A stretch of DNA of 64,000 nt from the NCBI GenBank assembly GCA_963576725.1, contig OY755240.1:57226633-57290632 (forward strand). The letters are read 5' to 3'. Source of the DNA: Azorinus chamasolen. Taxonomy: Eukaryota > Mollusca > Bivalvia > Cardiida > Solecurtidae. The translations under genes were made by a program, and so were the position numbers. Positions 14,783 to 50,750 of this stretch are shown piece by piece. Within the stretch, counting starts at the first letter, position 1; each line of letters starts with the position of its first letter. The notes under the pieces are model-generated. The model saw nothing but the letters and a program-made list of their open reading frames with translations, had not been told where the DNA came from and ran no database searches.

Positions 14783-14829
14783 CTGAAAAGGAATTCAAAG
14801 GAACATTATGCACTTAAAGATTAAAACAT

Positions 14830-15532: not shown

Positions 15533-15642
15533 CCATTTCATACGGATTATAAATAGTTGCAAGTATTCGTTTGCATTTTACAAACAGAATATCGAGACTG
15601 GTTCTAGTTTATTTAGTGTTGTATGGACATTCTGAAAAGAAA

Positions 15643-16281: not shown

Positions 16282-16312
16282 AAAGACTTAGTTTGAGTCG
16301 TCAAGTAAACCT

Positions 16313-17246: not shown

Positions 17247-17248
17247 AA

Positions 17249-18506
17249 GTGATGGGGAGTATCGGTGAGATTGGCGTAGAAGAAGTTAAGGAAAAGCAAA
17301 GGAGTGACATAACTCTGAGTAAATTTCGAGAGAGAGCAAGTGAGAATTCACAGCTTGTGTCTAAGACGGGTGCAAATACCCGATTTGTAGTAGCCAGAGA
17401 AATTCTGTATAGATATTTCCAGAGTGAGAAGATTGAAAATGGTAAGTTGTTCAAACAAATGTGTGTTCCCTCGGATTTAAGAAATGAAGTGTTAAAACTA
17501 GCACATGATTCAGTGATGGGTTTGTCAAACGACCTTCCCGAAAGGTAAAGTCCAGAAAGTCCCGATAGGTGTTATGCCCCTGATAGGAAACCCGTTTGAC
17601 AGAGTGCCATTTGACTTGATAGGCCCGATTAACCCATCTCCTGATCGAGGAAACCGTTTCATTCTAACATAAGTAGATTATGCAACCCGTTATTCAGAGG
17701 CAGTTGCTCTCAAACATATAGACTAAGAAACAGTTGCTGAAGCCATGGTAGAAATTTTTAGCAGAGTAGGTGTCCCAAATGAGATATTGTCCGACATGGG
17801 AAAACAATTCACTGCAGATTTAATGGGGGAGGTAGGTATATTGCTTTCTATCAGAAAGTTGACAACCACCCCATACAATCCTGCCTGCAACGGCTTAGTA
17901 GAAACATTTAATGGCACACTGAAGAGTATGATAAAAAAGATGTGTAGTGAGCAGCCCAGATTGTGGGATAGGTATATTTTCCCATTGCTTTTTGCATACA
18001 GAGAGACACCACAGGCTAGTTTAGGGTTTTCTCCCTTTGAGCTTTTGTTTGGTCGTACTGTGAGAGGTCCATTTACAATTCTAAAGGAATTGTGGACAAA
18101 GGAGAAAGAAGAGAGTGAGGTTCAGATTACATACCAGTACGTAGCAGATCTTAGAAATAGGATTGAACAGACCTTAACGTTAGCACGAGAGGAGTTAGAG
18201 AGAAATAGTCATACGTATAGGAAGTATGGTAATGTAGGTAGGAAGTCGAGGTATCTTAAAGCTGGTGATAGGGTGTTGATTCTTTTACCTACCAGTAACA
18301 ACAAATTACTGATGCACCTCCAGGGTCCGTACGAAATCACAAAGAAATTGAATGATTTCGACTACATTGTGAGAGTGAAAGGTAAAGAGAAAAATTACCA
18401 CGCAAACCTTCTTAGAAAGTACGTGACTATAGAAAACCAGGTCAGATCTAATGAATTGACTGCGACTCGATATGTCGAACTCGGAAAACTACCCCACTGC
18501 CCATAG
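17249..18506 (+). pseudogene. Gypsy 1 integrase, broken
   Basis: The N-terminal region (LFKQMCVPSDLRNEVLKLAH, giving the first His of the HHCC zinc finger) stops near 17522, where about 40 residues of the finger are missing. The catalytic core resumes at KVQKVPIG with the first Asp in FDLIGPI (about 17612), the second in LSDMGKQF (about 17790) and Glu in GLVETFNGTLK (about 17898), a D-X35-E spacing. In-frame stops occur near 17668 and 17725. The last 253-residue stretch (17745-18506) is open and ends in the C-terminal region KNYHANLLRKYV. Integrase would insert the cDNA; this copy cannot be active. Confidence 0.88.
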
Positions 18507-29447: not shown

Positions 29448-30356
29448 CTAGTAACAAATGCTGAAAAAGTGCGTTTTCAGACACCTTTTGAAACATGCCA
29501 GTGACCTTGCGTCTCTAATTCCTGACGGTAGAGCATTCCAAAGTGTCGGAGCTGCATGCATGAAACTTCTCTCATCGTATTTTACCGTACGACTTTTTGG
29601 CACAACCAACGACAATGATCTGCTTGCTGACCTTAACTCTCTGCGCGGCCTGTATACGTCAAGCATGTCGACAATGTACTTGGGAGATTCATTGTGCATG
29701 GCTTTATATGTAAGAGTCAGAATTTTGAATTCAATTCGATGTTGAACCGGAAGCCAGTGAAGTTCCTTCAAAACCGGCGTGATATGATTATATCGAGAAG
29801 TTCTGGTAATGATGCGGGCTGCTGTGTTTTGCACCCTTTGAAATTTCCGCAGTGAGTTGTTCGAAATCCCATGCAGCAGTGAATTGCAGTAGTCTATTTT
29901 CGATGTAACAAGAGAGTTTACCAAAGTCTTGGTAGCATCAGGTGAGAGGTACTTTCTAATATGGCCTATTTGCCGGAGCTGCGCATAGCTAGACCTACAC
30001 ACGGAATTGACATGTGATGTCATATCCATTTGTGAATCGAGCCATGCACCGAGATTCTTTATACACAAAGATGGCTTGATTTTAGAGGGTCCTACTTGCA
30101 CACTAACCTCTGTAGGTACTTCTGTGTTTTTTGTATGAAACAGAATGACCTCAGTCTTGTCAGTATTGAGCTTCAGCATGTTCTGATGCATCCAAGAGAC
30201 TACTTCTTTGAGACAGTCCTCAACTCGCGATAAAGCTTCCAGTTGACAGGATATGCCCTTGGGCTTAAAGGACAGGTATAACTGTGAGTCATCGGCATAG
30301 AAATGGTGATTAAGCCCATGATTTCTGCAGATTGAGCCAACAGGTTTCGTGTACAT
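29448..30356 (-). CDS. LINE pol: C-terminal RT
   Basis: 302 codons in the frame after the breaks. HFYADDSQLYLSF is RT motif C with the catalytic YADD. LNTDKTEVILFHTK and the thumb region (SYAQLRQIGHIRKYLSPDAT, SKIDYCNSLLHGIS, PVQHRIEFKILTLTYKA) follow as in CR1/L2 elements. It ends 29448 in FFSICY. The VPQGSVLGP turn lies in a third frame at 30394-30356, so two 1-nt indels separate this ORF from the upstream one. Confidence 0.9.
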   Translation of the reverse strand: MYTKPVGSICRNHGLNHHFYADDSQLYLSFKPKGISCQLEALSRVEDCLKEVVSWMHQNMLKLNTDKTEVILFHTKNTEVPTEVSVQVGPSKIKPSLCIKNLGAWLDSQMDMTSHVNSVCRSSYAQLRQIGHIRKYLSPDATKTLVNSLVTSKIDYCNSLLHGISNNSLRKFQRVQNTAARIITRTSRYNHITPVLKELHWLPVQHRIEFKILTLTYKAMHNESPKYIVDMLDVYRPRRELRSASRSLSLVVPKSRTVKYDERSFMHAAPTLWNALPSGIRDARSLACFKRCLKTHFFSICY

Positions 30357-30372
30357 GATGTAGTTTTTGGTC

Positions 30373-32889
30373 CTAGGACGGAACCCTGTGGCACGCTATA
30401 TTCAATTTTATCTGGGGTGGACAGTTTCCATCTACTGAGACTATTTGATAGCGGTCATTCAGGTAGGAGGTTATCCACTCAAGAGGTTTTCCAATAATTC
30501 CGAAGTCTTTTTCCAGGCGTTTCAGCAGAGTTTCATGATCGATAGTGTCAAATGCAGCCGATAAGTCGAGCATGACGAGAACAGTTATTTCGTTTTTATC
30601 TAGGGATTGAAGGATGTCGTTCTGAACTTTCAGGAGAGCAGTCTCCGTTGAATGATGCTTTCGGTATGCCGACTGATGATGCTCATGTAGTCCGTTTGAG
30701 GTCAAGTGGGACTCGATGCGCTTGTCCACTACTTTTTCTAACACTTTGGAGACAAATGGCAAATTCGAAACAGGCCTATAATTCCTAAGTTCGTCTGAAT
30801 CCAGATTCGGTTTCTTCAAAATAGGTCTGACATGTGACATCTTGAAGTTTTTTGGAACGTAGGCAGTGTCTAAAGAGGAGTTTACAATTTTCGTCAGAAT
30901 CGGAAGAAGTTCACCAAGGCATGACCTTAACAGCCATGTAGGTATAGGATCCAGTTCACATGACTTACAAGGGGATGCCTTAATGATCTGTTCTACTTCT
31001 TCTTCTGTAGCTGTAACAAAACTATCAAAAGCGTTCGTTGCATGCTGCATTTCAGTAATAACTGGTGCACTCGAGACAGTGTTTGATGCAATATCTGCCC
31101 GAATTTTGTCCACTTTGTTGACAAAAAAGTCACTGAAGTCTTGTGCAAGTTGTCTTGAGGACGAAGTCTCAGGCAAATTGATGTCACTAGTCGTGCCTAA
31201 CAGGTGCTTAGTAACTTTGAAAAGACTCTTTGAGTCTGCCTGGCAAGATTCTACTTTCTCTGAGTAGAAATCAACCTTTGCCTTTGCCAACAGCTTGTTT
31301 ACTTTGGCACACTGTTCTCTGTATAGCTGATGGTCTATTGTGAGTCTGGATTTTCTCCAATTTCTTTCCAACTTGCGCCGTGCATGTTTAGCATCGTGCA
31401 GTTCCTGGGTATACCACGGACATGATGGTCTGAGCGTTATGGTTTTAGTACGCAATGGTGTATGTTTATCGGCAAGTGCCTCCAGCGCTTGGGTATATGT
31501 GTTAACCAGCTCATCAACATCTGTCATTTGCAAACTTGCTTTGATGGGTTCAGATTTTATGAGATCTGTTTTAAATGAGTCAACATTAATTGCTCTAAGT
31601 TTCCGAAATAAAACAGTTTTTCTCACTGTTGGAGGTTTAGCCGCCTTTGCTTCGAAAGTTACGGAAAAATGATCGCGCGAAACTTTACCAGTGCCGTCAG
31701 ATAGCCCTGGATCGGTGACCTCAATATTTGACACACCGTCATCACCGTTTCTCGTGATAATAACATCAAGGGTATGTCCACCTACATGAGTGGCTTCATC
31801 CACATGTTGTTGCAATCCAAATGACTCTAGTGTACTAACAAAGTTAACTGTGTTCCTGTCACTTTGATTGTCAAGATGGATGTTTAAGTCCCCTACAATG
31901 ATGACTGGTCTGTCACAAGTCACAAATTTAGATAGGAAAAGTGGCCATTCATTATCAAGAAAATCTCCGGTTTTAAGGCCATTTCCCCGCGATGGCGGTG
32001 GTCTGTAAACGACTACTAGGCGTAGAGTGAAATCTTGGATACTTATGGTGCAGTCCATGTACTCAAAATTTGAGAAATCGCCATCTTTTGTTGACGAATG
32101 GAGACGAAGTCCTATTGAAGTCTTATGTATGACTGCCACCCCGCCGCCACGGTTGCCATTGCAGCGGGGGACATGTTCAATTTTGTAATTGGTGGGAACT
32201 AGTTCACTTAGGCACGATTTGTCTACAGAACTACCGAGCCAGGTTTCTGTAACGGCTACCACATCTAAGTCATTTGAAACAATATAGTCGCAAATAGAAA
32301 GAGCCTTGTTTTTGACTGATCTAGGATTTATGCTGCATACTTTTACAAAAGTCTGAATTCTGGCTGGCGTTGGAGGTTCGCGTTTCACAAGTACAAGATT
32401 GTCCGTTACTCTGGGAAAGGGCACTGCTGAAAATTTACCAGTGTTTCTGTGAGGTTTTGAAACAGTAGGTATGATTATCTGGGGTATCTCTTTCAAGTGA
32501 TATAAATTTACACCAGCAGATGGAATTTCCCTTTTGATCTGCCGGTTTCCAGAAACAATTGGAATTGATTGGGGTATTTCCCTTAATTTGTTTAAATGAA
32601 CACCTTTATTTACATCCCAAAAACGCTTTGTTCTCTTTGATTTCGAGTTGCCCCCTCTCGAACCCCTAAATTTAGCTAAGCCAAATTGCCCGAAGTCTAA
32701 CAGTCCTAGCTGTTTTAATCTTGATACTAATAGGTTGCTGGGTTTTAAATTGGGCGATAATTGCCCTATAAAAGAAAGATCACACCTTGTATAAGTAATC
32801 CGCTTCTCCACTAATCCACTTCTCATCTCCACCTGTATATCCTGATGCCTGTGGCTCACACATTTGGTTTTAAAAGTCCAATATGACAC
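30373..32889 (-). CDS. LINE pol: endonuclease and N-terminal RT
   Basis: 838 codons. Residues 1-180 are basic and not recognised. Residues about 183-415 are an endonuclease/exonuclease/phosphatase fold: SINPRS (N187), VTETWL (E215), VVYRPP (near 294), GDLNIHLD (333-340) and SRDHFS (D406, H407), all the usual catalytic positions. RT fingers and palm follow: VRPILKKPN, LRNYRPVSNLPFVSKVLEK, and motif A VMLDLSAAFDTIDH near 785. The frame then shifts within the turn before the VPQGSVLGP motif. The enzyme nicks target DNA and primes cDNA synthesis from the element's 3' end. Confidence 0.9.
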   Translation of the reverse strand: MSYWTFKTKCVSHRHQDIQVEMRSGLVEKRITYTRCDLSFIGQLSPNLKPSNLLVSRLKQLGLLDFGQFGLAKFRGSRGGNSKSKRTKRFWDVNKGVHLNKLREIPQSIPIVSGNRQIKREIPSAGVNLYHLKEIPQIIIPTVSKPHRNTGKFSAVPFPRVTDNLVLVKREPPTPARIQTFVKVCSINPRSVKNKALSICDYIVSNDLDVVAVTETWLGSSVDKSCLSELVPTNYKIEHVPRCNGNRGGGVAVIHKTSIGLRLHSSTKDGDFSNFEYMDCTISIQDFTLRLVVVYRPPPSRGNGLKTGDFLDNEWPLFLSKFVTCDRPVIIVGDLNIHLDNQSDRNTVNFVSTLESFGLQQHVDEATHVGGHTLDVIITRNGDDGVSNIEVTDPGLSDGTGKVSRDHFSVTFEAKAAKPPTVRKTVLFRKLRAINVDSFKTDLIKSEPIKASLQMTDVDELVNTYTQALEALADKHTPLRTKTITLRPSCPWYTQELHDAKHARRKLERNWRKSRLTIDHQLYREQCAKVNKLLAKAKVDFYSEKVESCQADSKSLFKVTKHLLGTTSDINLPETSSSRQLAQDFSDFFVNKVDKIRADIASNTVSSAPVITEMQHATNAFDSFVTATEEEVEQIIKASPCKSCELDPIPTWLLRSCLGELLPILTKIVNSSLDTAYVPKNFKMSHVRPILKKPNLDSDELRNYRPVSNLPFVSKVLEKVVDKRIESHLTSNGLHEHHQSAYRKHHSTETALLKVQNDILQSLDKNEITVLVMLDLSAAFDTIDHETLLKRLEKDFGIIGKPLEWITSYLNDRYQIVSVDGNCPPQIKLNIACHRVPS

Positions 32890-34240
32890 AAAATTGTTTT
32901 ATTAAATTCACTTTTTCCTGTTAAATCACACAACAGAATCACCTAAAAAGTACATCAATCTGTTCACAATCCCTTCATGCACAATTGTGTCACGTTTCAG
33001 AAAGTCTTATAAAGTATTTTCCTCTTAAAACTATGCAAAATATCAGAGCAAAATTAATGCAGCCTTCACACTTTGGCGCATATATCACTGTATATTATTG
33101 AGACAACTAATATGTGTCCAGAAGGAAAAATGTTAAGTATAAAACCACAATTGTTTCTGAATGATCCACCAGACACATTACATTCAGCACTTTAATTAAT
33201 ACGTTTTGGTTTATGGGTGGTCGACACATGTGACACCCACTAGAGAAAATCAAAACGCAGCCTCCTTAAATGAATAGCTCATGAAATTGGAGAACTAATT
33301 TTGCATCGAATAGCTGAAGTGTTTTGCACAGAAACCTGCTAAAATACTTACCGAAAGCTAACATCTAATTTCAACACCACGAAAGCATCGCTTTTTCCGC
33401 CATGATATGTTTAGGTACTGTCTTATGACTGACTTTGCTATTTAATATAAATCGCGCCCCTTAACTCCAATTTGGAACCACCTGAAAGGGGAGTACCTTT
33501 TACTATATGTATTGGCATTATGACGGTTGCGGGAAAATATCCGCAATAAAAATATAATTCAACGAAACTATGAATTAGGTTTTTATGATTTTTGTTCATT
33601 AAATACAATACTTAACCTAATAAAAGCTTAATTTATAAATGGTATAGCGGTCAAGTCTTAAAAGGCACCATCTTTTTATAAATAAGTTGTAGCGGCGGAT
33701 TGATGTTTTCGTACATTTTCGTAAATCTGCTCATAAAAACAACTTTTCACTTGACGTTTTCTACGAAATGTTCGCCTTTAGTAAACAAAGATGTAGTGCC
33801 ATCGAAAGTGTGATTAATTAATGATATTTAATGACAAGAGAACACATATCCGGTCGTTAAGTATCTGTTTCGTGGGTGATTTTTTCCAACAAACCTCAAG
33901 AACGTCCGTAAACTTAGTCAAGTAAAGACCACCGAAAAAAGCGTGACGAAAATAATTACCCAATTTATTGACCAGCAAGACCTCATGTTATTTTTTTTTG
34001 TCCCTGTATTTCGAGTCTTAATTCTTATTTTTAATACCTGTCTGACTAAAAGTAATATTATCAAATGCAAATGTAAATGCAATTTTAAAAATAACCGCAG
34101 GTTAAATGAATATTTTAAAAACCCGTTTCGTACATTAACAAATTAGATCGATGCAGTCTATCAAATGCTTTTGATGGTTCGTGTTTATATCAGCTATTGG
34201 TGATTGTAAGTTTTTATTAATGGAAAAGTAGTAAAGTCAA
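32890..34240. other. Interval upstream of the LINE, nothing recognised
   Basis: The part next to 32889 may be LINE 5' UTR. No ORF above 70 codons, no repeat that I can relate to other parts of the window. Confidence 0.5.
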
Positions 34241-36149: not shown

Positions 36150-37246
36150 TTGTTTTCCTAAAGTTGTCGAAATTGGCTTTTTTCGTATCTGTTGACAAAG
36201 TATTTTGATGACATGAAACGGCAACAACAGGGTTACGGTAAAGAGTTCTGTAAGCGCCTCTCCCATCGTCCCTCTGCTCTTTGTATGCAGAGATGCCTTC
36301 ATTATGAATACTCTTAACGATATATCCTTCAGATCCCAATCGGTCGACCAGTTTACTCTTGCCCTAGATACAAACAACATATATCTTGGTTCAATGATTT
36401 GCTCACCTGTCTGGTATACCTTTCATTGTTCTATGCGGCATGTTTGCCAGAAAATATTACTGTAGTTTATAAGCATACCAAAGCCTACTGCGCAACGTCT
36501 GTACATAAAAAGTATGACTCTTTGCACTTAAGGTATTATCCTTATCTGGTTCAATCTCAAGATAGGCATCAACAGAAAAGCGAGGATGTCAGCCAAACAT
36601 ACGATAATGCGGGGAAAATCGCATCATTTTATAAGGCATTATACGCCTGCACCAAATGAGCTATAAAGCTCTTCCAGTCATGCCTATGTCTTTCCTCTAG
36701 AGGACCGAGAATCTTCAAAAGGGTTTGAAGATAAACTTGTAAACTTGTATGATACTATAACTGCAACCCGGCGATGGCTGGTAGCATCTAACTCTGCAGA
36801 AGTAAAAACATTGGTATGTGGGTTATTCCCAGTGAAAACTTGAAAACTCTTTCCATACAGATACTTATGAAACTTATCTGTTGTTGCCCACTTATGTGCA
36901 AGCAATTCCAACGTATGCGCTTGATATTTCCTCTAAGTCCTCTACTGGCATAAGCTAATACTCTGTCAATAAAACCGGTTTCTGGTAAAAATCAGGAACC
37001 AAGACCAGAGATACTGGTATCTGTATGCAGAATTAATGGACAAGAATAATCCGAAAAACCCCAAACAGGTTGACTAGATAGAACTTCCTTAACCTTTCTG
37101 AAAGCTACCTTCTGAGCCTAGCCCCATATCCATAGAAAAGGAGACGAACCTTTCTTCTTTCTACTTGACCCCTTCTTACTAGTACCTTGACCTTCCAGGA
37201 GCTTGTTTAAAGGATCAACAAGATTGGCATAACCTTTAACAATCCG
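36150..37246 (-). pseudogene. Gypsy retrotransposon 2, RNase H and integrase C-terminal part
   Basis: On the minus strand from 37246: YANLVDPLNKLLEG, then SSQPVWGFSDYSCPLILHTD, the start of RNase H (Asp of HTD as in LHTDAS). After several breaks come MELLAHKWATTDKFHKYLYG, FQVFTGNNPHTNVFTSAELD (36911-36740) and SYKF. The integrase core is missing; the next recognisable text, 36690-36620, is WKSFIAHLVQAYNAL, the end of integrase. Degraded C-terminal domain pieces (VNWSTDWDLK, AYRTLYRNPVV) follow to about 36150. This is the usual RT-RNase H-integrase order, so the element is distinct from Gypsy 1. Confidence 0.8.
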
Positions 37247-37552
37247 GGACTCCCTAAAACGAATGACGAATGAAAATGGAATGACGAATGACAGGTAGTA
37301 TTTTTACAATGACTGGTCCCTTGTCATTCAGTTTGTTATAAGATGGAATGACAATGGTTATAGATAGAATGACATACGTTTTAGCCATTGTAGTCGCCAT
37401 ATGACCCTTTGGAAATGGAATGACACTGTTGTAAGGTGGAATGACAGTTATTATAGGCTGAATGACAGACTTTTGAGACATACATTGTAGCACCGTAGCC
37501 CCCTTATGATCTTTTGGAAATGGAATGACACTATTTAAGGTGGAATGACAGT
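37247..37552 (+). repeat. Foldback left tip and first monomers
   Basis: About 100 bp of tip with GAATGACGAATG repeats, then three monomers in GGAATGACA orientation, ending inside a monomer after GGAATGACAGT where the insertion starts. Confidence 0.88.
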
Positions 37553-38099
37553 CGCGTGTATCTCTGAAACCAGTTGGGCTAGAGTCACCAAACGTCACAG
37601 GAATGTTCAACTGAGTTGTTGTGCACCTGGGGTTTTGAATTCCCCCTGATAACTTTGGAGTTATTGCCCCTGATGACTTAACCCTTTACCCAATAGCCAA
37701 ACCTCCAAACCCTTATCTTACACCGATATAGGTAAGCCTTATCCGATAATCAATAACCAATATCCATGTGGTAAGCGTAACACACTCTCACCAATACAGT
37801 TTATTGGATATATTGGAAAATTAGTTTGAATCTGACACCTGTCCTTTTCAATCCCATATAAATGCATTTAGGTTAACCATTATCATTATAGTGTAAATAA
37901 AAAGTTTTTAGGGAATTAAATTCTCTTTTTGATGGTGTATTTTTCATGCAGTTTGAAGTATGTATAAGTACAATACACGGGGATAAAACGAGGCAAGTCA
38001 ATATCTTTTCAGAACTTTATTATAATTGACCTTAAAATCTCAGCTAAATATGTTCGGAACAGTAACCTATCGCCTGCTATTCAAAATAAAATATCATTT

Positions 38100-38470
38100 C
38101 CAAACAGGCTTGATCCAGATCAGAGCTGAGTAAATAATTCCTATATTCATTCAGCGCGGACCCAGATCATACAGCGAGTAACTCAGCGCCGGTTCGGGAT
38201 CCACGCTTGGATCGATATCAGACGCTGAGAGATTCATTTTAGCCACTAAGGTTAGATCCAGATCAGAAGTTGAGTATGATGTCTGATCTGGATCTAGATC
38301 CAAACATTGATTTAGATCAGATACTGAGTAACTCGGCACCGGACCTGGGTCCAAAATTTATCTAAATTAGATTCTGGGTAACTGTGTGTCTGATCTGAAT
38401 CCAATTATAGATCCAGATTAGATGTTAAGTTTTCCGGTGCCTGATCTGGATCTAAAGTATTGAACCCGTC
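38100..38470. repeat. Degenerate minisatellite rich in GATCCAGATC words
   Basis: Units combine AGATCCAGATCAGA with GAGTAACTCGGC or variants. Copies are diverged, so no exact period is given. An open minus-strand frame here is a by-product of the repeats. Confidence 0.75.
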
Positions 38471-38778
38471 CAGGTTAGGGCCTGGCTCCAAAACGAATGC
38501 CGCCACCTGAAAAAAAAATAATCGGAAGACAAATTTCATATGCATGTTCACTGAACTAGATGAAATCATGAAATTCCGACACATATAAATTATCCTATTT
38601 TTTTTTATTGTTCGTTGAAACATTTTCCGTTTTTTATAATGCATTTGAGTTGGGCACAAGGAAAATGGAGAATGCGTTGCATTTCAAACAGTGTAGACTC
38701 AGATCAGCTGCATCTCACACGCAGCATCTGCTTCACACTGTTTGAAAATCACCAGAATATATGCATTATTTATTCATG

Positions 38779-38856
38779 TGGCCCAGCAAACAGTGTAGAT
38801 CCTGATCAGATGCCGCATGGGAAAAGCGGCTGCTGATCTGGGACTACACTGTTTAC
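38779..38856. repeat. GATC-core palindrome
   Basis: AAACAGTGTAGATCCTGATC on the left pairs with GATCTGGGACTACACTGTTT on the right, around GCCGCATGGGAAAAGCGGC. This is the clearest copy of the core shared by the MITE families in the window. Confidence 0.85.
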
Positions 38857-39845
38857 AATCTCCCAACCCACTTTTCCTGATATCTGTCTCATTTGCATTT
38901 ATTATGCATTAATCGAGATTTAGAATAGTTCCTGATCTGAGTCTACACAAATTCAGTTTTTTTTGCATTATGGTATATTTATTAAATTAATTTTGATGTA
39001 GATGAGACGCCACGTAGCTTGTCATTTCATCCAGATCTAAACTAAATGGCGCTTATGAACGAATTATTCGTTTTATATCAATTCAGACAGTTTGGATCTC
39101 GATAAAAATATCGGCGTCCACACGAGATCCTAACTGTTTGACATTTATGAATGAATTCCCAGACATGATTCGTTTGAATGGTTAAATTGGTTGATTAGCT
39201 AAGTTATTTGATTGATATTGCTATCTACCCTCTGATCGGATTATACTTACGAAAGTTTTATTGCCCAATTTCCGCCGGTGTGTTTTGAGGTTGACAACGG
39301 GTGACCCATGTGTTATTTTAGCCCCAAGGCAAGTCGCGCGTGATTTATGGAGTTCCGATTAGTCATTGGTCAATTATATTTAACATATTTATATTTAGAA
39401 TTTGACCTTGGCGACAGTGGAAAATTTTCGTGTGATCATTTATCGGCAAAGTTCGTACTTTCCGAATAATGACGAATAGTATTATACCCATGTCTTACGA
39501 TGATCACCGAACATATAAAAAGAATATACCACTGGACTTCAGCCTCGTTTTTTGCAATATTTTTCTGTAGTAACACTATAATTAGATTTGGGATTTCAGA
39601 AGATATATTAACACACTTTAAATGTGTACACATCCAGATAAAGAAATTTAACTAGAAAATTGAGATATTAGCAGGTAAATATTGGACTCGCTCAAACCCG
39701 CTTATACACGGTAATAGATAGACCCGCGCATACCGCTTCTATCAGGGAATAAGCAAGGTCGCGTTATCTCGCTTCTATCAGGTGATAAGCAAACTCGCGA
39801 TTTCTCGCGCATATAAGGTAAAGGGTTAACATTAGAAAACACTTA

Positions 39846-42086
39846 TTATATGTAGAATGACATACTTTTGAGATATTGTAGCCGCCATATGACCTTTTGG
39901 AAATGGAATGACACTATTTAAGGTGGAATGACAGTGCTTATAGGTAGAATGACATACTTCTGAGAATTTGTAGCCCCGATATGACCTTTGGAAAATGGAA
40001 TGACATTGTTGTAAGGTGGAATGACAGTTATTATAGGTGGAATGACATATCTTTGAAATAGTGTAGCCCCCATATGAGATTTGTGAAATGGAATGACACT
40101 GTTGTAAGGTGGAATGACAGTTATTATAGGTGGAATGACATATTTTTTAGGCATTGTAGCCCCGATATGACAGTTGGGAAATGAAATGACACTTTTGTAA
40201 GGTAGAATGACATACTGGCAATTTGTAGCCCCTTATGAACTTTTGGAAATGGAATGACACTGTTGTAAGTTGAATGACAGTTATTATAGACGGAATGACA
40301 TACTTTTGAGACATTGTAGTCGCCATATGACCTTTTGGAAATTGAATGGCACTGTTGTTAGGTGGAATGTCAGTTATTACAGGTGGAATGACAAACCTTT
40401 GAGACATTGTAGTCGCCATATGACCTTTTGGAAATGGAATGACACTATTTAAGGTGGAATGACAGTGCTTATATGTAGAATGACATACTTCTGAGAATTT
40501 GTTGCCTCGATATGACTTTTGGAAAATGGAATGACACTGTTGTAAGGTGGAATGACAGTTATTATAGTAGGAATGACATATCTTTGAAATATTGTAGACC
40601 TCATATGAGATGCGTGAAATGGAATGACACTTGTAAGGTGGAATGACAGTTATTATAGGTGGAATGACATATTTTTTAGGCATTGTAGCCCCCATATGAC
40701 ATTTTGGAAATGGAATGACACTGTTGTTAGGTGGAATGACAGTTATTACAGGTGGAATGACAAATCTTTGAGACATTGTAGCCGCCATATGACCTTTTGG
40801 AATTGGAATGACACTATTTAAGGTGGAATGACAGTGCTTATAGGTAGAATGACATACTTCTGAGAATTTGTAGCCCCGATATGAGATTTGTGAAATGGAA
40901 TGACACTGTTGTAAGGTGTAATGACAGTTATTATAGGTGGAATAACATACTTCTGAGACTTTGTAGCTCTCATTTGACCTTTGGGAAATGGAATGACACT
41001 TTTGTAAGGTAAATGACAGTTATTATAGTTGGAATGACATACTTTTGAGACACTGTAGCCCCCATATGACCTTTTGGAAATGGAATGACACTACTTAAGA
41101 TGGAATGACACCGCCTATAGGTGGAATGACATACTTCTAGGACTTTATAGCCCCGATATGACCTTTGTGAAATGGAATGACATTGTTATAACGTGGAATG
41201 ACAGTTATTATAGGTAGAATAACATATCTTTGAGACATTGTAGCCCCAATATGACATTTGGGAAATAGAATGACACTTTTGTAAGGTGGAATGGCAGTTA
41301 TTATAGACGGAATTGCATACTTTTGAGACATTTTAGCCCCCAAATGTCCTTTGGTAAATGGAATGACACTGTTGTAAGGTGGAGTAACAATAGTTATAGG
41401 TGGAATGACCTATCGTTGAAAGAATAAAGCCCCCATATGACCTTTGGGAAATTGAATGACATTGTTGTAAGGTGGAATGACAGTTATTACAGGTGGAATG
41501 ACATATCTTCGAGACAATGTAGCCCCCATATCACATTTGGGAAATGGAATGACACTGTTGTAAGGTGGAATGACAGTGATTATAGGTGTTATGACATACT
41601 TATGAGACATTTTAGCTCCCTTATGTCCTTTTGGAAACGGAATGACACTATTTACGGCGGAATGACAGTGCTTATAAGTGAAATGACATACCTCTGAGTT
41701 GTTGTACCCCCCATTTGACCTTTTGGAAATGGAATGAAACTGTTGTAATATAGAATGACAGTTATTATAGTTGGAATGACATACTTTTGAGACATTGTTA
41801 CCGCCAAATAACCTTTTGGAAATGGAATGACACTATTTAGGATGGAATGACAGTGCTTATATGTGGTATAACGTACTTCTGAGACGTTGTAGCCCCAATA
41901 TGACCTTTAGGAAATAGAATGACACTGTTGTAAGGTGGAATGACAGGTTGTTATAGGTGAATGAGATATTCTGAGACATTGTAACCCCCATATGACATTT
42001 TGGAAATGGAATGACACTGTTGTAAGGTGGAATGACAGTTATTATAGATGTAGCCCCGATATAACCTTTGAGGAATGGAATGACAC
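39846..42086 (+). repeat. Foldback left arm, about 24 monomers of 93 bp
   Basis: ATATGACC landmarks at 39887, 39979, 40072 and 40165 give the 92-93-bp period. Each monomer has GGAAATGGAATGACACTG, AAGGTGGAATGACAG and GGTGGAATGACATAC followed by TTGTAGCCCCCATATGACC. Confidence 0.93.
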
Positions 42087-42087
42087 A

Positions 42088-45000
42088 GTGTCATCCCATT
42101 TCATAAAGGTCATATCGGGGCTAAAATTCTCAAAAGTATGTCATTCCATCTATAAACACTGTCACCCCCCTTAAATAGTGTCATTCCATTTCCAAAAGGT
42201 CATAAGGGGGCTACAATGTCTCACAAATATGTCATTCCACCTATACTAACTGTCTATCCACCTCGAATAGTGTCATTCCATTTCCAAAAGATCATATGGG
42301 GCTAAAATGTATCAAAAGTATGTATGTCTCAAAGGTATGTCATTCCACCTATAATAACTGTCATTCCACCTTACAACAGTGTCATTCCATTTCCCAACTG
42401 TCATATGGGGGCTACAATGTCTCAAGAATATGCCTTTTCACCTATAATAACTATCATTATACCTTAAAACATTGTCATTCCATTTCCCAAATGTCATATC
42501 GGGGCTACAATGTCTCAAAGATATGCTATTCTACCTTTATTAACTGTCATTCCACGTTACAACAGTGTCATTCCATTTCCCAAATGTCATATTGGGGCTA
42601 CATTGTCTCAGAAGAATGTCATTCCATCCATAATAACTGTCATTCTACCTTACGACATTGTCATTCCATTTCCAAAAGGTCATATGGGGGCTACAATATC
42701 TCATAAGTATGTCATTCCACCTATAATAACTGTCATTCCACCTTACAACAGTGTCATTCTATTACCCAAAGGACATACTGGGCTACAATGTCTCAAATAT
42801 ATGTCATTTCATCTATAATAACTGTCATTCCACCTTACAACAGTGTCATTCTATTTCCCAAAAGACATATGGGGGCTAAAATGTCTCAACAAATATGTCA
42901 TTCCATCTATAATAAATGTCATTCCATGTCTCAGAAGTATGTCATTTCACCTATAAGCACCGTCATTCCACCTTAAATAGTGTCATTCTATTTCCTAAAG
43001 GTCATAAGGGGGCTACAGTATCTCAACGTTATATCATTCCATCTATAATAATTGTCATTCAACCTCAAATAGTATCATTCTATTTCAAAAAGGTCATATG
43101 GCGGCTACAATGTCTCAAAAGTATGTCAATCCACCTATAATAACTGTCATTCCACATCAAATAGTGTCATTCCAATTCCAAAAGGTCATATGGGGGCTAC
43201 AATGTTTCAAGAGTATGCCATTCTGTCTATAAAAGCTGTCATTCCACCTTACAACGGTGTCATTCCATTTCCCAAATCTCATATCTGGGCTACAAATAAG
43301 AAATATGTCATTCCACCTATAAGCACTGTCTCAGAATGTCTCAGAAGTATATCATTCCACCTATAAGCACCGTCATTCCACCTTAAATAGTGTCATTCCA
43401 TTTCCAAAAGGTCATATGGGGCTACTATGTTTCAAAGGTATGTCATTCCACCTATAATAACAGTCATTCCACCTTACAAACAGTGTCATTCCATTTCCAA
43501 AAGGTCATATGATGACTCCAATGTCTCAAAAGTATGTCATTCCGCCTATAATAACTGTCATTCCACCTTACAACAGTGTCATTCAGTTTCCAAAATGTCA
43601 TATGTCGGCTACAATGTCTCAAAAGTTTATCATTCCGTCTATAATAACTGTCAGTCCACCTTACAACGGTGTCATTCCATTTCCCAAATGTCATATGGGG
43701 GCTACAATGTTACAAAGATATGTCCTTCCACCTATAACTACTGTCATTCCACCTTCAATAGTGTCATTTCTTTTCCAAGAGGTCATATGGAGGCTAGTAT
43801 ATCTCAAAGGTATGTTATTCCACCTATAATAACTGTCATTCCACCTTAAAACAATGTCATTCCTTTTCCAAAAGGTCATATGGTGACTACAATGTCTCAA
43901 AAGTATGTAATTCCGCCTATAATAACTGTCATTCCACCTTACAACAGTGTCATTGCATTTCCCAAATGAAATATCGGGGTTACAAAGTCTCAAAATGATG
44001 TCATTTCACCTATAAGCACTGTCATTCCACCTTAAATAGTGTCATGCTATTTCCAAGAGGTCATATGGGGTTTACAATGTCTCAAAAGTATGTCATTCCG
44101 CCTATAATAACTGTCATTCCACTTTACAACAGTGTCATTCTATTTCCCAAAAGACATATGGGGGCTAAAATGTCTCAACAAATATGTCATTCCATCTATA
44201 ATAAATGTCATTCCACCTTACAACAGTGTCATTCCATTTCAAAAAGGTCATATCGGGGCTATAAGCCTCAGACGTATGTCATTCTACCTATAATAACTGT
44301 CATTCTACCTTACAACAGTGTCATTCCATTTCCAAGAGGTCAAATGTGGGCTACTATGTCTCAACGATATGTCATTCCACCTATAATAACAATCATTCCA
44401 CCTTACAAACAGTGTCATTCCATTTCCAAAAGGTCATATGATGACTTCAATGTCTCAAAAGTATGTCATTCCGCCTATAATAACTGTCATTCCACCTTAC
44501 AACAGTGCCATTCAGTTTCCAAAATGTCATATGTCGGCTACAATGTCTCAAAAGTTTATCATTCCGTCTATAATAACTGTCATTCCACCTTACAACGGTG
44601 TCATTCCATTTCCCAAATGTCATATGGGGGCTACAATGTTACAAAGATATGTCCTTCCACCTATAACTACTGTCATTCCACCTTCAATAGTGTCATTTCT
44701 TTTCCAAGAGGTCATATGGAGGCTAGTATATCTCAAAGGTATGTTATTCCACCTATAATAACTGTGATTCCACCTTAAAACAATGTCATTCCATTTCCAA
44801 AAGGTCATATGGTGACTACAATGTCTCAAAAGTATGTAATTCCGCCTATAATAACTGTCATTCCACCTTACAACAGTGTCATTGCATTTCCCAAATGAAA
44901 TATCGGGGTTACAAAGTCTCAAAATGATGTCATTTCACCTATAAGCACTGTCATTCCACCTTAAATAGTGTCATGCTATTTCCAAGAGGTCATATGGGGT

Positions 45001-48000
45001 TTACAATGTCTCAAAAGTATGTCATTCCGCCTATAATAACTGTCATTCCACCTTACAACAGTGTCATTCTATTTCCCAAAAGACATATGGGGGCTAAAAT
45101 GTCTCAACAAATATGTCATTCCATCTATAATAAATGTCATTCCACCTTACAACAGTGTCATTCCATTTCAAAAAGGTCATATCGGGGCTATAAGCCTCAG
45201 ACGTATGTCATTCCACCTATAAGCACTGGCATTCCACCTTAAATAGTGTCATTCCATTTCCAAAAGGTCATATGGGGGTACAATGTTTCAAAGATATGTC
45301 ATTCCACTTAAAATAACTGTCATTCAACTTTACAACGGTGTCATTGCATTTCCAAAATGTCATATGTGGTCTACTATGTCCCAAAAGTATGTCATTCCGT
45401 CTACAATAAGTGTCATTCTACCTTACATCAGTGTCACCTTAAAACATTGTCATTCCATTTCAAAATGGTCATATGGTGACTACAACGTCTTAAAGGATGT
45501 AATTCTGTCTATAATAACTGTCATTCCACCTTACAACAGTGTCATTGCATTTCCCAAATGTCATATCGAGGTTACAACGTCGAAGATGTATGTCATTTCA
45601 CCTATAAGCACTGTCATTCCACCATAAGTAGTGTCATTCTATTTCCAAAAGGTCATATGGGGCTTACAATGTCTCAAAAGTATGTCAATCTGCCTATAAT
45701 AATTATCATTCCAACTTGTAACAGTGCCATTCTATTTCCCAAAAGACATATGGGGGCTACAATGTCTCAGCGGTATGCCATATCACCTATAAGCACTGTC
45801 ATTCCACCTTAAATAGTGTCATTTCATTTCCAAAGGTCAAAAGGGGGCTACAATGTCTCAAAAGTATGTTATACCACCTATAAGCACTGTCATTCCATCT
45901 TAAATAGTGTCATTTCATTTCCAAAAGGTCATAAAGGGGCTACAATGTCTCAAAAGTTTGTCATCCCACCTATAATAACTGTCATTCCACCTCAAATAGT
46001 GTCATTCCATTTCCAAAATGACATATGGGGTCTACTATGTCTCCAAAGTATGTCATTCAGTCTATAATAAGTGTCATTCTACCTTACAACAGTGTCATTC
46101 CATTTCCTAAATGTCAAATGGGGGCTACAAAGTCTCAAAAGTATGTAATTGCACCTATAAGCACTGTCTTTTAACCATAAGTAGTGTCATTCCATTTCCA
46201 AAAGGTCATATGGGGGCTACAATGTCTCAAAGGTATGTCATTCCGCCTATAATAACTGTCATTCCATTTTACAACAGTGACATTCGATTTCCCAAAAGAC
46301 ATATGGGGGCTACAATGTCTAAAACATATGTCATTCCATCTATAATAACTGTCATTCCACCTTACAACAGTGTCATTCCATTTCAAAAAGGTCATATCGG
46401 GGATAAAAAGCCTAAGAAGTATGTCATTCCACCTATAAGCACTGTCATTCCAGATTAAATAGTGTCATTCCATTTCCAAAAGGTCATAAGGGGATACAAA
46501 GTCTCAAAAGTATGTCATTCCACCTATAATAACTGTCATTCCACCTCAAATGGTGTCATTCCAAATCCAAAAGGTCATATGGGGGCTACAATGTCTCAAA
46601 TGTATGTCATTCTCTCTATTATAACTGTCATTCCACCTTACAACGGTGTCATTCCATTTCCCAAATGTCATATAGGGGCTACAATGTTTCAGATATATGT
46701 CATTTCACCTTACAACAGTGTCATTCAGTTTCCAAAATGTCACATTAGCGCTACAAAGTCTCAGAAGTATGTTATTCCACCTATTAGCACTGTCATTCTA
46801 CCTATAATAGTGTCATTCCATTTCCAAAATGTCATATGGGGTCTGCTATGTCTCAAAGGTAGGTCATTCCACCTATAATAACTGTCACTTCACCTTAAAA
46901 CAGTGTCATTCCATTTCCAAAAGGTCATATGGTGACTACAATGTTTCAAAGATATGTCATTCCACTTATGATAACTGTCATTGAACCTCAAATAGTGTCA
47001 TTCGAATTACAAAAGGTCATATGGGGGCTACAATGTCTCATAAATTTGTCATTCTGTCTATAATAATTGTCATTCCACCTTACAACGGTGTCATTCCATT
47101 TCTTAAATGTCATATGGGAGGCTACAATGCTTTATAGATGTCATTTCACCTTACAACAGTGTCATTCAGTTTCCAAAATGTCATATTGGCACTACAAAGT
47201 CTCATAAGTATGTCATTCCACCTATAAGCACTATCATTCCACCATAAATAGTGTCATTCCATTTCTAAAATATCATATGGGGGCTACTATGTCTCAAAGG
47301 TATGTCATTCCACCTATAATAACTGTCATTCCACCTTAAAACAGTGTCATTCCATTTGCAAAAGGTCATATGGTGACTACAATATCTGAAAAGTACGTCA
47401 TTCCGTCTACAACAGTGTCATTACATTTCCCAAATGTCATATCGAGGCTACAATGTCTCAAGGATATGTTAATCTACCTATAATAACTGTCATTTCACCT
47501 TTTAACAGTGTCGTTTCATTTCCAAAAGGTCATATCGGGGCTACAAAGTCTCATAAGTATGTCATTCCACCTATAAGAACTGTCATTCCACCTTAAAAAG
47601 TGTCATTCCATTTCCAAAAGGTCATATGGCGGATACAATGTCTCAAAAGTATGTCATTCCGCCTATAATAAGTGTCATTCTACCATACAACAGTGTCATT
47701 CTATTTCGAAAAGTTCAAATGGGGGCTACAAAGTCTCAGAAGTATGTCATTCGGCCTAAAAGCACTGTCATTCCACCTTAAGTAGTGTCATTCCATTTCC
47801 AAAAGGCCATATGGAGGCTACAATGTCTCAAAAGTATGTCATTCCGCCTATAATAACTGTCATTCTACCTTATTACAATGTAATTTCATTTCCAAAAGGT
47901 CATAGGGCGGCTACAATGTCTCAAATGTATGTCATTCTATCTATAACCATTGTCATTCCATCTTATAACAAACTGAATGACAAGGGACCAGTCATTGGTA

Positions 48001-48058
48001 AAATACTACCTTTCATTCGTCATTCCATTTTCATTCGTCATTCGTTTTAGGGAGTCCC
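42088..48058 (-). repeat. Foldback right arm, about 64 monomers of 93 bp in opposite orientation
   Basis: The same monomers appear as TGTCATTCC-bearing units. Because 93 is a multiple of three, long ORFs (up to 244 codons at 44044-44778) stay open across monomers, giving 31-residue periodic translations such as CHSTLQQCHSISK. They are not genes. Confidence 0.93.
43433..45213. repeat. Recent 929-bp (10-monomer) tandem duplication inside the right arm
   Basis: Rare variants recur 929 bp apart: GGTCATATGATGACT at 43502 and 44431, and the sequence behind the identical start at 44044 and 44973. The two copies (about 43433-44284 and 44362-45213) are nearly identical, whereas neighbouring monomers differ strongly. 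Confidence 0.9.
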
Positions 48059-49450
48059 AGAGTAATAGCCTGCAAATCTTAAGAATTGGCGTACATCTGT
48101 AATGTTAGAGGGTTCAGACCAATTGGTCAAATCACTGATTTTTTCCAGGATCTGTTTAGAAGTATTAAATAATTCAAATTTTGAAGCTTTCAGCTTTCAG
48201 CTTTCAACTTTACATTGTCCGAAAGCAATGCTGGAAAACAGACTTCTAACGTTCAATATGCTCTTCAAAGGTACGGGAGAAGATAAGTATGTCTCAATGA
48301 ATATAAAACATTCATTGAGATGCACATCACCCATGCACTTGTCCATCATCCGCTGCAAACAAACGCGAACGTTGGTTTAACCAAAACTGAGTCTGATGAA
48401 CTTATAAAATCCAAGATTTCCAATTGAAAAAGCCGCCTTATGATTACCTTCCTTAATCATTTCCACTTGTCAATATCCACTTGTATGGTCTAACTTTGAA
48501 AAATATTTAGATCCATAGTGAGTGTCAACAGTGTCATCAAAACGTGTTAAAACACACATGCATCCTTCCTAGTCCTCGTATAGAGAAGGTCACAGTCAAT
48601 ACAAAAGCGAAGACAGCTAGAGAAGGTCACAGTCGATACAAAAGCAAAGACAGCTAGAGAAGGTCACAGTCAATACAAAAGCTAAGACAGCTAGAGAAGG
48701 TCACAGTCAATACAAAAGCGAAGACAGCTAGAGAAGGTCACAGTCAATACAAAAGCAAAGACAGCTAGAGAAGGTCACAGTCAATACAAAAGCAAAGACA
48801 GCTAGAGAAGGCCACAGTCAATACAAAAGCGAAGACAGCTAGAGAAGGTCACAGTCAATACAAAAGCGAAGACAGCTAGAGAAGGTCACAGTCAATACAA
48901 AAGCAAAGACAGCTAGAGAAGGTCACAGTCAATACAAAAGCGAAGACAGCTATCTTTCTTCCTGAGCAAAACTATGTTGGACGAGAAACGACTAGTAGAA
49001 TATCTTATGACACCCGCTTCCAGCACATCTTTAACATGCTGTCTCATATCCTTTTACAAAGCAGGAGGAATCTTCCTATATGACATGTTGAATGGTCGTT
49101 CATCCTTTAGCACATTTCTATACTGAAGTAAAGCAGTCGTTCCAAGGTAAGTTGGACTCTTGGGAGAAAATATGAGTCTAGTTACCGAACACTTGTCAAG
49201 CCCTAAGGACATTTCCTTCAGACAAAAGAGAATATATTGATATTAATGCCAAGATCATCCAAATGAGGATTTGAAGAGCCCTTACTAGGATTAGAAATAG
49301 ACAAAGCAAGAATATAATTATTCAGTAAGTATATACAAGACATTAACCTTTAACCTATCACCACAGTGATTCAGATTAACAAGTCTGAGACACACAGCAT
49401 AATCTAAATCAACGCCCAAGCAAGTTCTGTATGTTTATTTGAGGCGGTAT
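48059..49450 (-). pseudogene. Gypsy retrotransposon 2, reverse transcriptase part
   Basis: Minus-strand text from about 49170: DERPFNMSYRKIPPAL, DMRQHVKDVLEAGVIRYSTS, SSNIVL and RFCID (RT entry), then a 37-bp tandem array (48582-48951), HKAAFSIGNLGFYKF-like palm sequence, QRMMDKCMGDVHLNECFIF near 48340-48280, and DVRQFLRFAGYYS ending at the foldback insertion. The catalytic YxDD position is changed to a non-acidic form (FIFIETY). Many stops and shifts. It joins the RNase H part across the 10.8-kb insertion. Confidence 0.8.
48582..48951. repeat. 37-bp tandem repeat, ten copies, inside RT remnant
   Basis: AGAGAAGGTCACAGTCAATA starts every 37 bp from 48582 to 48915 with almost no differences (GCGAAG or GCAAAG or GCTAAG). 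The unit overlaps the coding region of RFCIDYR-like text, so it arose by expansion of a piece of Gypsy 2 pol. 37 bp is not a codon multiple. Confidence 0.95.
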
Positions 49451-50750
49451 TAAACGCCTGTAGCATAAATGAAAAATTAAATACTAAACCCTAACTATTG
49501 GTGACTATAACAATTTAGAATTTCAACAATACATGGCCGCGAGATACCGAAACAGAATAAAATCACTCAATATAATTCAACATAGACTTCGCTCAGTACT
49601 TACCAGATACATGGAGTAAGTTGACTTATCATAATAAAGTTGTTGTCGTGAGACAACAAAATAAAGCAAACTATGAAATAACTATGCCTTATGTATCATT
49701 ATGCTACCATCAATATTGTCTGGAACGCACTGAGCTGATAAGGTGGGGACGCACAGGAAGAAGTTAGAAAGAAAGTCCATGCAAAGCATGCGCTATCTGT
49801 ATCTCATTACTGTTCTCATACACCGATGTGTACGTGATATAAAGAGATATACATGTGTAAAGACACGTATGAAAGCAGATGACATTTCATTCATTTCAAT
49901 TAAATGGAACCCTGGTTCCACAAAGCTTAATCAGATTGCACTTTAGCAATATGGAACCCTGGTTACAATTAAATATCATTTTCGTCAGTGATTAATTTTG
50001 ATACAACTTTTGTTGAAATAATTTTCAGAATTGGAAGACCCCGTTTGAGTTATTCAGCAAAAAAATGTTAAAGGCCTTTGCGTAGTTGAAACAGTTTTTG
50101 ATGTATTCATGATCAGTGGTTTAGAACGGCAAGTAACTCTATCGCTGTTCTGTCTGTATTCCTAATTTCAATATCTGCTGAATATCATGACCAAAATACT
50201 TATAATGCAATATGGAAGATGGAACATTGTAGCCATTTTAGAAAGTAAAGAAACAGATCTATCAAATACCATTACTAAACATAGCAGATCCTAATCAGAC
50301 AACTCCTATATGAGCAATCAGATCTGGATGTTTGTAAATGCGACAATGAGTTTGTATAAAAGAAAAGGTTATCTTTGTTCCACTGTCATTCAATAGACAA
50401 TTTTAGTATTGGTGCAAAACAGTACAGTCGCTGCATTCAAACATAATACACAACCTCTGAAATGAGACCAAGGATTGATTCTGCTTTGTTTGTTTATGAA
50501 ATAACATATTCTGGCATGAATATTCATGGAGTGGATGGTTAAATTATGACTAATTAGAATTATTTTCATTAACAGATGTTTCCTTCCTGAAATTATTTTC
50601 TATATACAACATGTATGCATTTCTATTAAAAGGTCTCTACATATACAGACGCGTACTCAAATACTATAATCGTCTTTGCTCCACCAAACCCAAACCCTTC
50701 GAGATGATTCTAAAGAGATGTCACAACATAGGGTTTGGTAGAGAAATAAA
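49451..50750. other. Interval without genes; family B repeat at 50130-50365
   Basis: The family B copy shares GGAACATTGTAGCCATTTTA and the GATC core with 26600-26840. Nothing else is recognised. Confidence 0.55.

What the first reader, a model, noticed from the sequence alone, without database searches (positions are those of the whole stretch)
37247..48058. A 10.8-kb foldback element built entirely from 93-bp tandem monomers
Two arms of the same monomer, roughly 24 plus 3 copies and roughly 64 copies, run in opposite directions and end in about 150-bp tips that are nearly identical. There is no unique core and no gene. Drosophila FB elements are the closest known plan, but I know of no described bivalve element of this design and size. 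The near-identical tips argue for recent movement or correction of the ends, while monomers inside are diverged.
Basis: partly seen in the sequence, partly recalled or inferred. Interest (0 to 1): 0.92.

Follow-up and report, generated by a model that had tools for sequence, protein, structure and literature searches.

The report
Foldback transposon built of tandem repeats
This stretch is a damaged copy of a jumping-DNA family whose body is mostly short repeated units in two mirror-facing arms; relatives sit elsewhere in the same genome, and several still carry the 9-base scar that insertion leaves.

Summary
Observation largely right, but "built entirely from 93-bp monomers" is wrong. Window 37246-48058 holds two opposed arrays of a 93-bp monomer (3+25 and 66 units, partials included) between near-identical inverted tips. 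37558-39838 is not monomer: one unit of a ~158-bp repeat, split by a 2.15-kb TTAA-flanked insertion. Six of 18 pairs have perfect 9-bp target duplications (0 of 306 mismatched pairings). The window copy lost its right duplication; a sister copy 1 Mb away keeps it (TAACAATCC), and 13 other copies of the target repeat run uninterrupted through the site. Five copies (four insertions) share one hinge. I read it as a non-autonomous Foldback-type transposon moved in trans by a 9-bp-TSD (Mutator/Phantom-like) transposase, which was not found. Against a simple story: 9 of 20 further tips looked at have no monomer behind them, and many arrays lack a listed tip. Near-identical tips do not show recent correction: tips are as alike between elements as within. 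Known kind, new family, near-coreless and unusually large.

The parts
37237..37245 (+). left target-site duplication TAACAATCC
   Evidence: identical 9-mer follows the outermost right tip of the sister copy L044 (9/9); joined flanks hit 13 copies of the target repeat that run through the join
37246..37338 (+). left terminal tip (93 bp, starts GGGACTCCC, holds three GAATGAC boxes)
37338..37557 (+). outer 93-bp monomers of the left arm (3, incl. partial)
37551..37681 (+). single unit of the ~158-bp repeat class, 5' part (ends at TTAA)
   Evidence: 88-92% to the first unit of the 158-bp arrays of L011, L012, L014, L016, L018, L022; alignment runs on after joining at TTAA
37678..39829 (.). nested insertion, 2,152 bp, TTAA on both sides and CCCTTTACC inverted ends (piggyBac-like by these marks, label recalled); not part of the foldback element
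   Evidence: (I6)
39830..39845 (+). remainder of the ~158-bp unit after the insertion
39846..42086 (+). left arm, inner 93-bp array (25 units incl. partial)
42080..42094 (.). hinge between the arms: ATGACAC-A-GTGTCAT; sequence around it conserved in five copies (four independent insertions)
42087..47966 (-). right arm, 93-bp array (66 units incl. partial)
47966..48058 (-). right tip; by comparison with L044 this is the inner of two stacked tips, the outer tip and its target duplication being deleted (inferred)
48059..48062 (.). AGAG, read as a remnant of the spacer that lies outside the inner tip in stacked copies
   Evidence: compare L044 and other stacked ends
48063..50695 (.). target repeat, right side; matches C6:58257600-58259700 in four pieces (85-95%), not at 48620-48913 and 49427-49663

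Best explanation
The feature is a decayed copy of a non-autonomous Foldback-type DNA transposon family. Plan of the best-resolved lineage: single tip, about two 93-bp monomers, a block of ~158-bp monomers, a 93-bp array, hinge, an opposed 93-bp array, inner tip, ~100-210-bp spacer, outer tip. No coding core was seen. It moves as a whole by cut-and-paste, with the tips as the cleaved ends and a 9-bp staggered insertion (insertion shown by target duplications and empty sites; cut-and-paste inferred). The enzyme is supplied in trans, most likely a Mutator/Phantom-like transposase (inferred from the 9-bp duplication and from Tm1 and Tetris). The GAATGAC-box arrays probably serve as extra transposase-binding sites (inferred) and change length after insertion by unequal exchange or slippage (inferred). 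The window copy lies in an older dispersed repeat. It and a sister 1 Mb away look like one insertion duplicated with its surroundings (inferred from right flank and array register; the sister's left end is lost). Later the window copy lost its outer right tip, and its left arm took up a TTAA-type insertion.
For: 110 tips genome-wide at up to 3 mismatches, 0 for the reversed control. Among the 100 listed, of 18 neighbouring ends within 25 kb 17 converge, 0 diverge, 1 is tandem. Perfect 9-bp duplications in 6 of 18 pairs versus 0 of 306 mismatched pairings; 8 or 9 of 9 in 8 of 18 versus 2 of 306; the signal peaks at exactly 9. Window left flank and sister right flank share TAACAATCC 9/9. The joined target has 16 matches: 13 run through the join at 80-83%, 3 are the occupied flanks. 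Five copies share the hinge (window and L071 belong to the duplicated pair, so four independent insertions), with 0.90-0.93 identity 50-300 bp to its left against about 0.82 between random monomers. In these the stacked tip is always on the same side of the hinge (the window's read from its sister). In 6 of 7 copies with both features the 158-bp block is on the arm opposite the stacked tip only (window through L044). Of the 100 listed exact monomer hits, all 9 clusters with both orientations run + then -, at least two of them near-copies of each other.
Against: No transposase was found between tips. Ten of 18 pairs have fewer than 8 of 9 matching flank bases (one of these a perfect 8-mer, two others 7 of 8); the window's own two flanks match 2 of 9. 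Many ends are unpaired: 86 ends after merging, 17 convergent pairs. Of 20 further ends (L073-L092) 9 have no 93-bp monomer within 0.98 kb, 1 has it in the opposite orientation, 2 have it only further in or mixed; 8 have it directly behind the tip or stacked tip. In the C1 and part-C2 listing, 8 of 9 two-sided arrays have no listed tip (10 of 110 tips are unlisted), and two of them sit between arms of another, 39-bp repeat, so the array is not confined to one tip family. Box conservation is weak (0.929 versus 0.886, p 0.026 with columns as units).
Confidence: 0.78

Rival explanations
1. Local rearrangement: a satellite array inverted on itself at this one place, tips being coincidental array ends.
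For: The window copy shows no target duplication of its own; arrays without a listed tip exist; 9 of 20 further tips have no array behind them.
Against: Tips recur 110 times, with unrelated flanks in the pairs compared; 17 of 18 neighbours converge; 9-bp duplications and empty sites; hinge shared by four independent insertions.
Confidence: 0.03
2. A foldback-like element of another superfamily (P-type like Galileo, or Merlin), not Mutator, supplies the transposase.
For: Foldback structure arose in several superfamilies (PMC3169594 and PMC3688188, passages seen). One pair has a perfect 8-bp duplication and two have 7 of 8. No MULE gene could be tied to the tips.
Against: Nine bp is clearly the best length; Tm1 with a Phantom-like transposase has 8-10-bp, most commonly 9-bp, duplications and tandem-repeat ends; Tetris has 8-10 bp.
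Confidence: 0.25
3. The reverse transcriptase in 6 of the 20 loci L009-L028 (and near the tip of L085), or the sub-threshold Polinton-like pieces in L028, mark the autonomous partner.
For: 6 copies in 174 kb of L009-L028, none in the 64-kb window; L028 has weak Pox_A32, rve_3 and RVT_1 matches; L085 shows RT sequence about 200 bp inside its tip (translated by eye).
Against: The RT family has 22,495 first-look candidates genome-wide, about one per 77 kb, so about two would be expected in 174 kb; six is only a mild excess. In L011 the RT frame starts at the array boundary like a truncated insertion. The named Pfam scores in L028 are all below cut-off.
Confidence: 0.04
4. The MULE at C15:16870430 is the autonomous element: its domain lies about 6 kb inside a tip.
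For: 36 MULE matches genome-wide, this one (E 4.9e-4, over the family cut-off) within 10 kb of a listed tip; the tip is 97.8% identical over 91 bp.
Against: No left tip and no 93-bp array in the 10 kb fetched. The adjoining 391 bp has 2,233 first-look candidates genome-wide; of the 40 scored, only this locus and its C16 counterpart lie by a listed tip (compared by eye). The C16 counterpart has the same tip, the same inner sequence (95.4% over 1 kb) and the same 100-bp outer flank, i.e. a duplicated locus.
Confidence: 0.05
5. Assembly artefact of palindromic DNA.
For: Long inverted repeats are hard to assemble.
Against: Many copies with different flanks, matching target duplications and shared hinge.
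Confidence: 0.02

Closest known systems
Tm1 (Mutator/Foldback family of root-knot nematodes; PMC3169594, passages seen)
   Same: composite ends with variable numbers of tandem repeats, 8-10-bp (mostly 9) target duplications in 45 of 53, non-autonomous majority, asymmetric outermost ends
   Different: Tm1 repeats are ~14 bp, its transposase-bearing element is 2.6 kb, and it has a middle region and a Phantom-like transposase; here 93- and ~158-bp monomers, up to 21 kb, mostly no middle, no transposase found
Tetris of Drosophila virilis (PMC4079207, passages seen)
   Same: terminal domain, then variable tandem repeats (220 bp) in each inverted repeat; 8-10-bp duplications; no autonomous copy; repeats also found beyond the element
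   Different: Tetris has inner domains and a middle domain; here the arms usually abut at a hinge, and they differ by a plan (158-bp block on one, stacked tip on the other)
Drosophila FB (recalled)
   Same: inverted arms of tandem short repeats
   Different: FB monomers are tens of bp and elements a few kb; no sequence link tested
Galileo (P superfamily, foldback-like; PMC3688188, passages seen)
   Same: long internally repeated ends; transposase binding shown inside the tandem repeats, the precedent for the binding-array idea
   Different: has its own P-type transposase; unique core recalled
Tandem repeat-containing MITEs of the clam Donax trunculus (title seen in a reference list; paper not held)
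   Same: by title, a bivalve DNA element that carries tandem repeats
   Different: not read, so not compared; whether it has inverted arms of repeats is unknown to me
Helentron-borne satellite arrays of the Pacific oyster (PMC7492417, abstract start and two passages)
   Same: satellite-like arrays dispersed by mobile elements in a bivalve
   Different: rolling-circle class without inverted arms or target duplication (recalled)

Membership tests
Foldback-type (structural class) | long inverted arms made of tandem direct repeats behind a short terminal domain | tested here: met
   17 of 18 neighbouring ends converge
Foldback-type (structural class) | dispersed copies with distinct flanks and 8-10-bp target duplications | tested here: met
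   6 of 18 perfect 9-mers versus 0 of 306; empty sites for the window copy
Foldback-type (structural class) | middle domain between arms (in the Tetris scheme, variable in size and composition; not treated as defining here) | tested here: not met
   of 13 loci among L009-L028 with both arms, 11 have under 60 bp between them, L019 100 bp, L010 695 bp; window 0 bp
Mutator/MULE (incl. Phantom) | 9-bp target duplication | tested here: met
Mutator/MULE (incl. Phantom) | MULE transposase in an element with the same ends | tested here: inconclusive
   36 MULE matches in the genome, one 6 kb from a tip but without partner tip in 10 kb and in a duplicated locus
Galileo / P superfamily | P-type transposase with THAP domain in an element with these ends | not tested
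   -
Drosophila FB (as a lineage) | sequence or transposase homology to FB/NOF | not tested
   no FB sequence compared; resemblance is of plan only

The most novel reading that the evidence does not exclude
A transposon that is almost nothing but its own binding sites: a 0.3-21-kb, near-coreless palindrome of box-bearing monomers with a left/right asymmetry (158-bp block one side, stacked double tip the other). Its 93-bp foldback array also forms the middle of a second foldback structure with 39-bp arms. Two such composites, C1:17.80 and C1:108.31 Mb, each have both arms; they are 94.9% identical over 6.06 kb (98.7% over the 4.3 kb around the 93-bp array) and 91.5% over 1.8 kb of the other arm, with an unlike stretch in between. 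Their outer ends were not reached, so movement of the composite is not shown. If it moves, foldback nested in foldback is a route by which satellite arrays spread through this genome.
Probability: 0.3. Interest if true: 0.72.

Novelty: new variant of a known kind. Interest (0 to 1): 0.56.

Why it matters
It links satellite DNA and transposons in one object with resolved anatomy: ends, target duplication, empty sites and a shared hinge. The family lets one test, within a single genome, whether arrays expand before or after insertion and whether repeat number affects mobility. It also bears on genome stability, since kilobase palindromes at many sites are prone to rearrangement. In the library searched (PMC open licences) I saw no description of a bivalve foldback element of this kind. 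Four bivalve or oyster papers in those listings that hold the word were checked for it and mention it only when citing Tetris, as does one review; other listed papers were not opened, and subscription papers and repeat databases were not searched.

Tried and rejected
Autonomous partner by reverse transcriptase association: rejected as background, though 6 copies against about 2 expected is a mild excess. MULE at C15: not supported. GGGACTCCC/GGGAGTCCC as a 9-bp target duplication rather than part of the tip: rejected, it is conserved as the tip start across copies with different flanks. Recent correction of the tips: not supported. Mirror register between arms: absent (best registers 0.84-0.85 against mean 0.822, sd 0.011, uncorrected for some 70 registers). 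Conserved boxes as proof of binding sites: only a weak signal. All six perfect-duplication pairs have a stacked end (6 of 9 versus 0 of 9 pairs, Fisher p 0.009), noticed after the fact, with the window counted as unstacked although its sister is stacked. Tip search of viral contigs: 0. Host identification by one protein: uninformative; by RT homologues: no informative names in the 120 listed. Whether the nested TTAA element recurs genome-wide was asked four times and never answered. Papers on FB4/NOF: none held; the Phantom paper is not held, nor the Donax one.

Full report
What is in the window. Tandem-repeat analysis finds opposed arrays of one 93-bp unit from about 39839 to 47970, and self-comparison gives long inverted matches between the two sides. 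The tip reads GGGACTCCCTAAAACGAATGACGAATG at 37246 (+) and 48058 (-) and nowhere else in the window at up to 3 mismatches. The tips match at 96.8% over 93 bp; the alignment continues for about 310 bp with rising divergence. A wrap-around alignment counts 3 + 25 units on the left and 66 on the right, partial ones included; 80 units are near full, with mean identity to consensus 0.892. The consensus unit holds three GGAATGAC boxes, 21 bp apart, and a further 30 bp; the left tip holds three GAATGAC boxes, the right tip two.

37558-39838 is not monomer. Its first ~130 bp and last 16 bp belong to a ~158-bp repeat that sits about 300 bp from the tip in L008, L028 and other copies. Between them lies a 2,152-bp insertion with TTAA on both sides and CCCTTTACC inverted ends; after joining the flanks at one TTAA the alignment to another copy runs on through the join. 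No open frame of 110 codons or more lies within 37558-39838.

Family. The window is G000:C6:57226633-57290632 in a 1.72-Gb, 137-contig genome. The first tip search scored 40 of 397 candidates and gave 47 matches. A 27-base pattern at up to 3 mismatches gives 53 + 57 matches, 0 for the reversed pattern; 100 of the 110 are listed. After merging same-way tips closer than 1.2 kb these are 86 ends, 12 of them stacked; within 25 kb there are 17 convergent neighbours, 0 divergent, 1 tandem; the convergent ones span 0.335-21.0 kb. A second tip variant (AAAGTG) has 26 matches at up to 1 mismatch, control 0, overlapping the 110. The monomer pattern has 2,986 matches at up to 2 mismatches against 7 in the reversed control. 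Of the 100 exact hits listed, on C1 and part of C2, there are 17 clusters: 9 with both orientations, all + then -; 3 one-sided; 5 single hits.

Insertion. I compared outermost flanks of 18 tip pairs: the 17 convergent ones, the window's among them, plus L015, whose right tip is truncated. Perfect 9-mers: 6 of 18 (ACGGCTACC, GTCGTTGTG, GGGAAAAAC, AGGAGGAAT, GTGAAAAAC, AAGACTTAG) against 0 of 306 mismatched pairings; no other length from 2 to 12 gives more than one perfect match among the 18. Two more have 8 of 9, one has a perfect 8-mer, two have 7 of 8. The remaining seven, the window among them, have no clear repeat in register; L015 keeps part of one after loss of its tip end. The window's right flank is explained by a sister copy, L044 at C6:58257200-58257700, whose outer right tip is followed by TAACAATCC, the window's left flank 9 of 9. 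Beyond it the flanking repeat matches the window in four pieces, 85-95%, between 47966 and 50695, and the sister's array matches the window's best in one register (86% against 80-83% elsewhere in the best rows). The sister's left tip was not found in the 14 kb to its left that were fetched, so only the right side is compared. The window kept the inner right tip and four bases of the spacer; outer tip and duplication are gone. The target rebuilt by joining the flanks has 16 matches in the genome: 3 are the occupied flanks and 13 run through the join at 80-83%.

Anatomy of the lineage. Of 13 loci among L009-L028 with both arms, 11 have less than 60 bp between them, L019 100 bp, L010 695 bp. Five copies (window, L022, L025, L071, and L018 reversed; window and L071 are the duplicated pair, so four independent insertions) share one hinge: 0.79-0.94 identity over 100 bp, 0.90-0.93 at 50-300 bp and 0.87-0.95 at 300-600 bp on its left, 0.83-0.91 and 0.76-0.84 on its right, against about 0.82 between random monomers. 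So whole elements were copied; arms were not built anew each time. In these the stacked tip is always on the same side of the hinge (the window's read from its sister). In 6 of 7 copies with both features the 158-bp block is on the other arm only; L011/L012 has it on both. All six perfect-duplication copies have a stacked end (seen after the fact).

Against simple readings. Of 20 further ends (L073-L092), 8 have 93-bp monomers in the usual orientation directly behind the tip or stacked tip, 1 in the opposite orientation, 2 only further in or mixed, and 9 none within 0.98 kb. Tip identity within elements (0.965, 13 of 14 pairs measurable) equals that between elements (0.965; permutation p 0.51), so alike tips say nothing about this copy's recent history. 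Monomers are as alike within the left arm (0.819), within the right arm (0.827) and between arms (0.822); there is no mirror register. Eight of the 9 two-sided arrays in the C1/C2 listing have no listed tip (10 tips are unlisted). Two of them, at C1:17.80 and 108.31 Mb, are near copies (98.7% over 4.3 kb; 94.9% over 6.06 kb with more flank) and each lies between inverted arms of a 39/78-bp repeat; their far arms match at 91.5% over 1.8 kb, with an unlike stretch between that arm and the array. Their outer ends were not reached. The 93-bp array is therefore shared by at least two structures.

Transposase. Not found. Duplications of mostly 9 bp with tandem-repeat ends are what Tm1 shows with a Phantom-like transposase (PMC3169594, passages); Tetris, with 8-10 bp and no autonomous copy, was placed in Mutator by the same reasoning (PMC4079207, passages). 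Of 36 MULE matches one lies 6 kb inside a listed tip at C15, but that locus has no partner tip in the 10 kb fetched and no array, its inner sequence is a common repeat, and the locus is duplicated at C16. A reverse transcriptase seen in 6 of the 20 loci L009-L028 has 22,495 first-look candidates genome-wide and is mostly background. Merlin- and P-type transposases were not searched for.

Mechanism. Shown: dispersed copies, 9-bp duplications, empty sites for the window copy, a hinge and an asymmetry inherited together. Inferred: cut-and-paste in trans by a Mutator/Phantom-like enzyme; arrays as auxiliary binding sites (precedent: Galileo, PMC3688188, passages); array growth after insertion. GGAATGAC boxes are only slightly better conserved than the rest (0.929 versus 0.886, p 0.026).

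Verdict. A real family of Foldback-type transposons: known kind, new family, unusual for near-coreless arms up to 21 kb, two monomer classes and stacked ends.

Noticed in passing
L095+L093+L096 (C1:17803000-17811900) and L097+L094+L098 (C1:108306200-108314800): 93-bp foldback array enclosed by inverted arms (about 1.9-2.3 kb or more each) of a 39/78-bp tandem repeat; the two loci are 94.9% identical over 6.06 kb. The hit spacing at C1:50.13 Mb suggests a third copy. Outer ends not reached.
   Followed up: partly
C18:56672700, 56679679, 56684248: Three tips of the AAAGTG variant in the same orientation; the two looked at (L042, L043) share nearly the same 40-bp outer flank, apparently a local duplication of an old insertion.
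   Followed up: no
L076, L078, L082, L085, L087-L091: Tips without 93-bp monomers within 0.98 kb; L082 shares 360 bp (94.7%) with the inside of L028, L088 with L072.
   Followed up: partly
window 37678-39829: 2,152-bp TTAA-flanked insertion with CCCTTTACC ends nested in the left arm; its genome-wide copy number was asked but not answered.
   Followed up: partly
window 37146-37245 and 48063-50695: The target is itself a dispersed repeat with 13 other copies found that run through the insertion site; beside it is a 37-bp tandem array (48581-48952).
   Followed up: partly
window 113-1389, 1785-3061 and from 3462: Three blocks of what looks like one tandem family (294-bp period in the first two, 18-bp subrepeat TTTATTGCAAAACTGGTT in all three).
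   Followed up: no
window 15553-18506: Gag and integrase pieces of an LTR-type retroelement (Retrotrans_gag over cut-off; integrase matches below cut-off).
   Followed up: no
window 29448-32898 (-): Endonuclease plus reverse transcriptase of a LINE-type element, in two overlapping frames.
   Followed up: no
window 10559-14813 (-): Frames with a 7-transmembrane (7tm_1) domain and leucine-rich repeats, possibly exons of one LRR-containing receptor gene.
   Followed up: no
L028:3-7484: Sub-threshold matches to Pox_A32 ATPase, rve integrase and a reverse transcriptase near a foldback tip, perhaps pieces of a Polinton-like element (label recalled); described only.
   Followed up: no
genome-wide: A very abundant reverse transcriptase family (22,495 first-look candidates; 150 scored, many in open frames of about 489 codons).
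   Followed up: no
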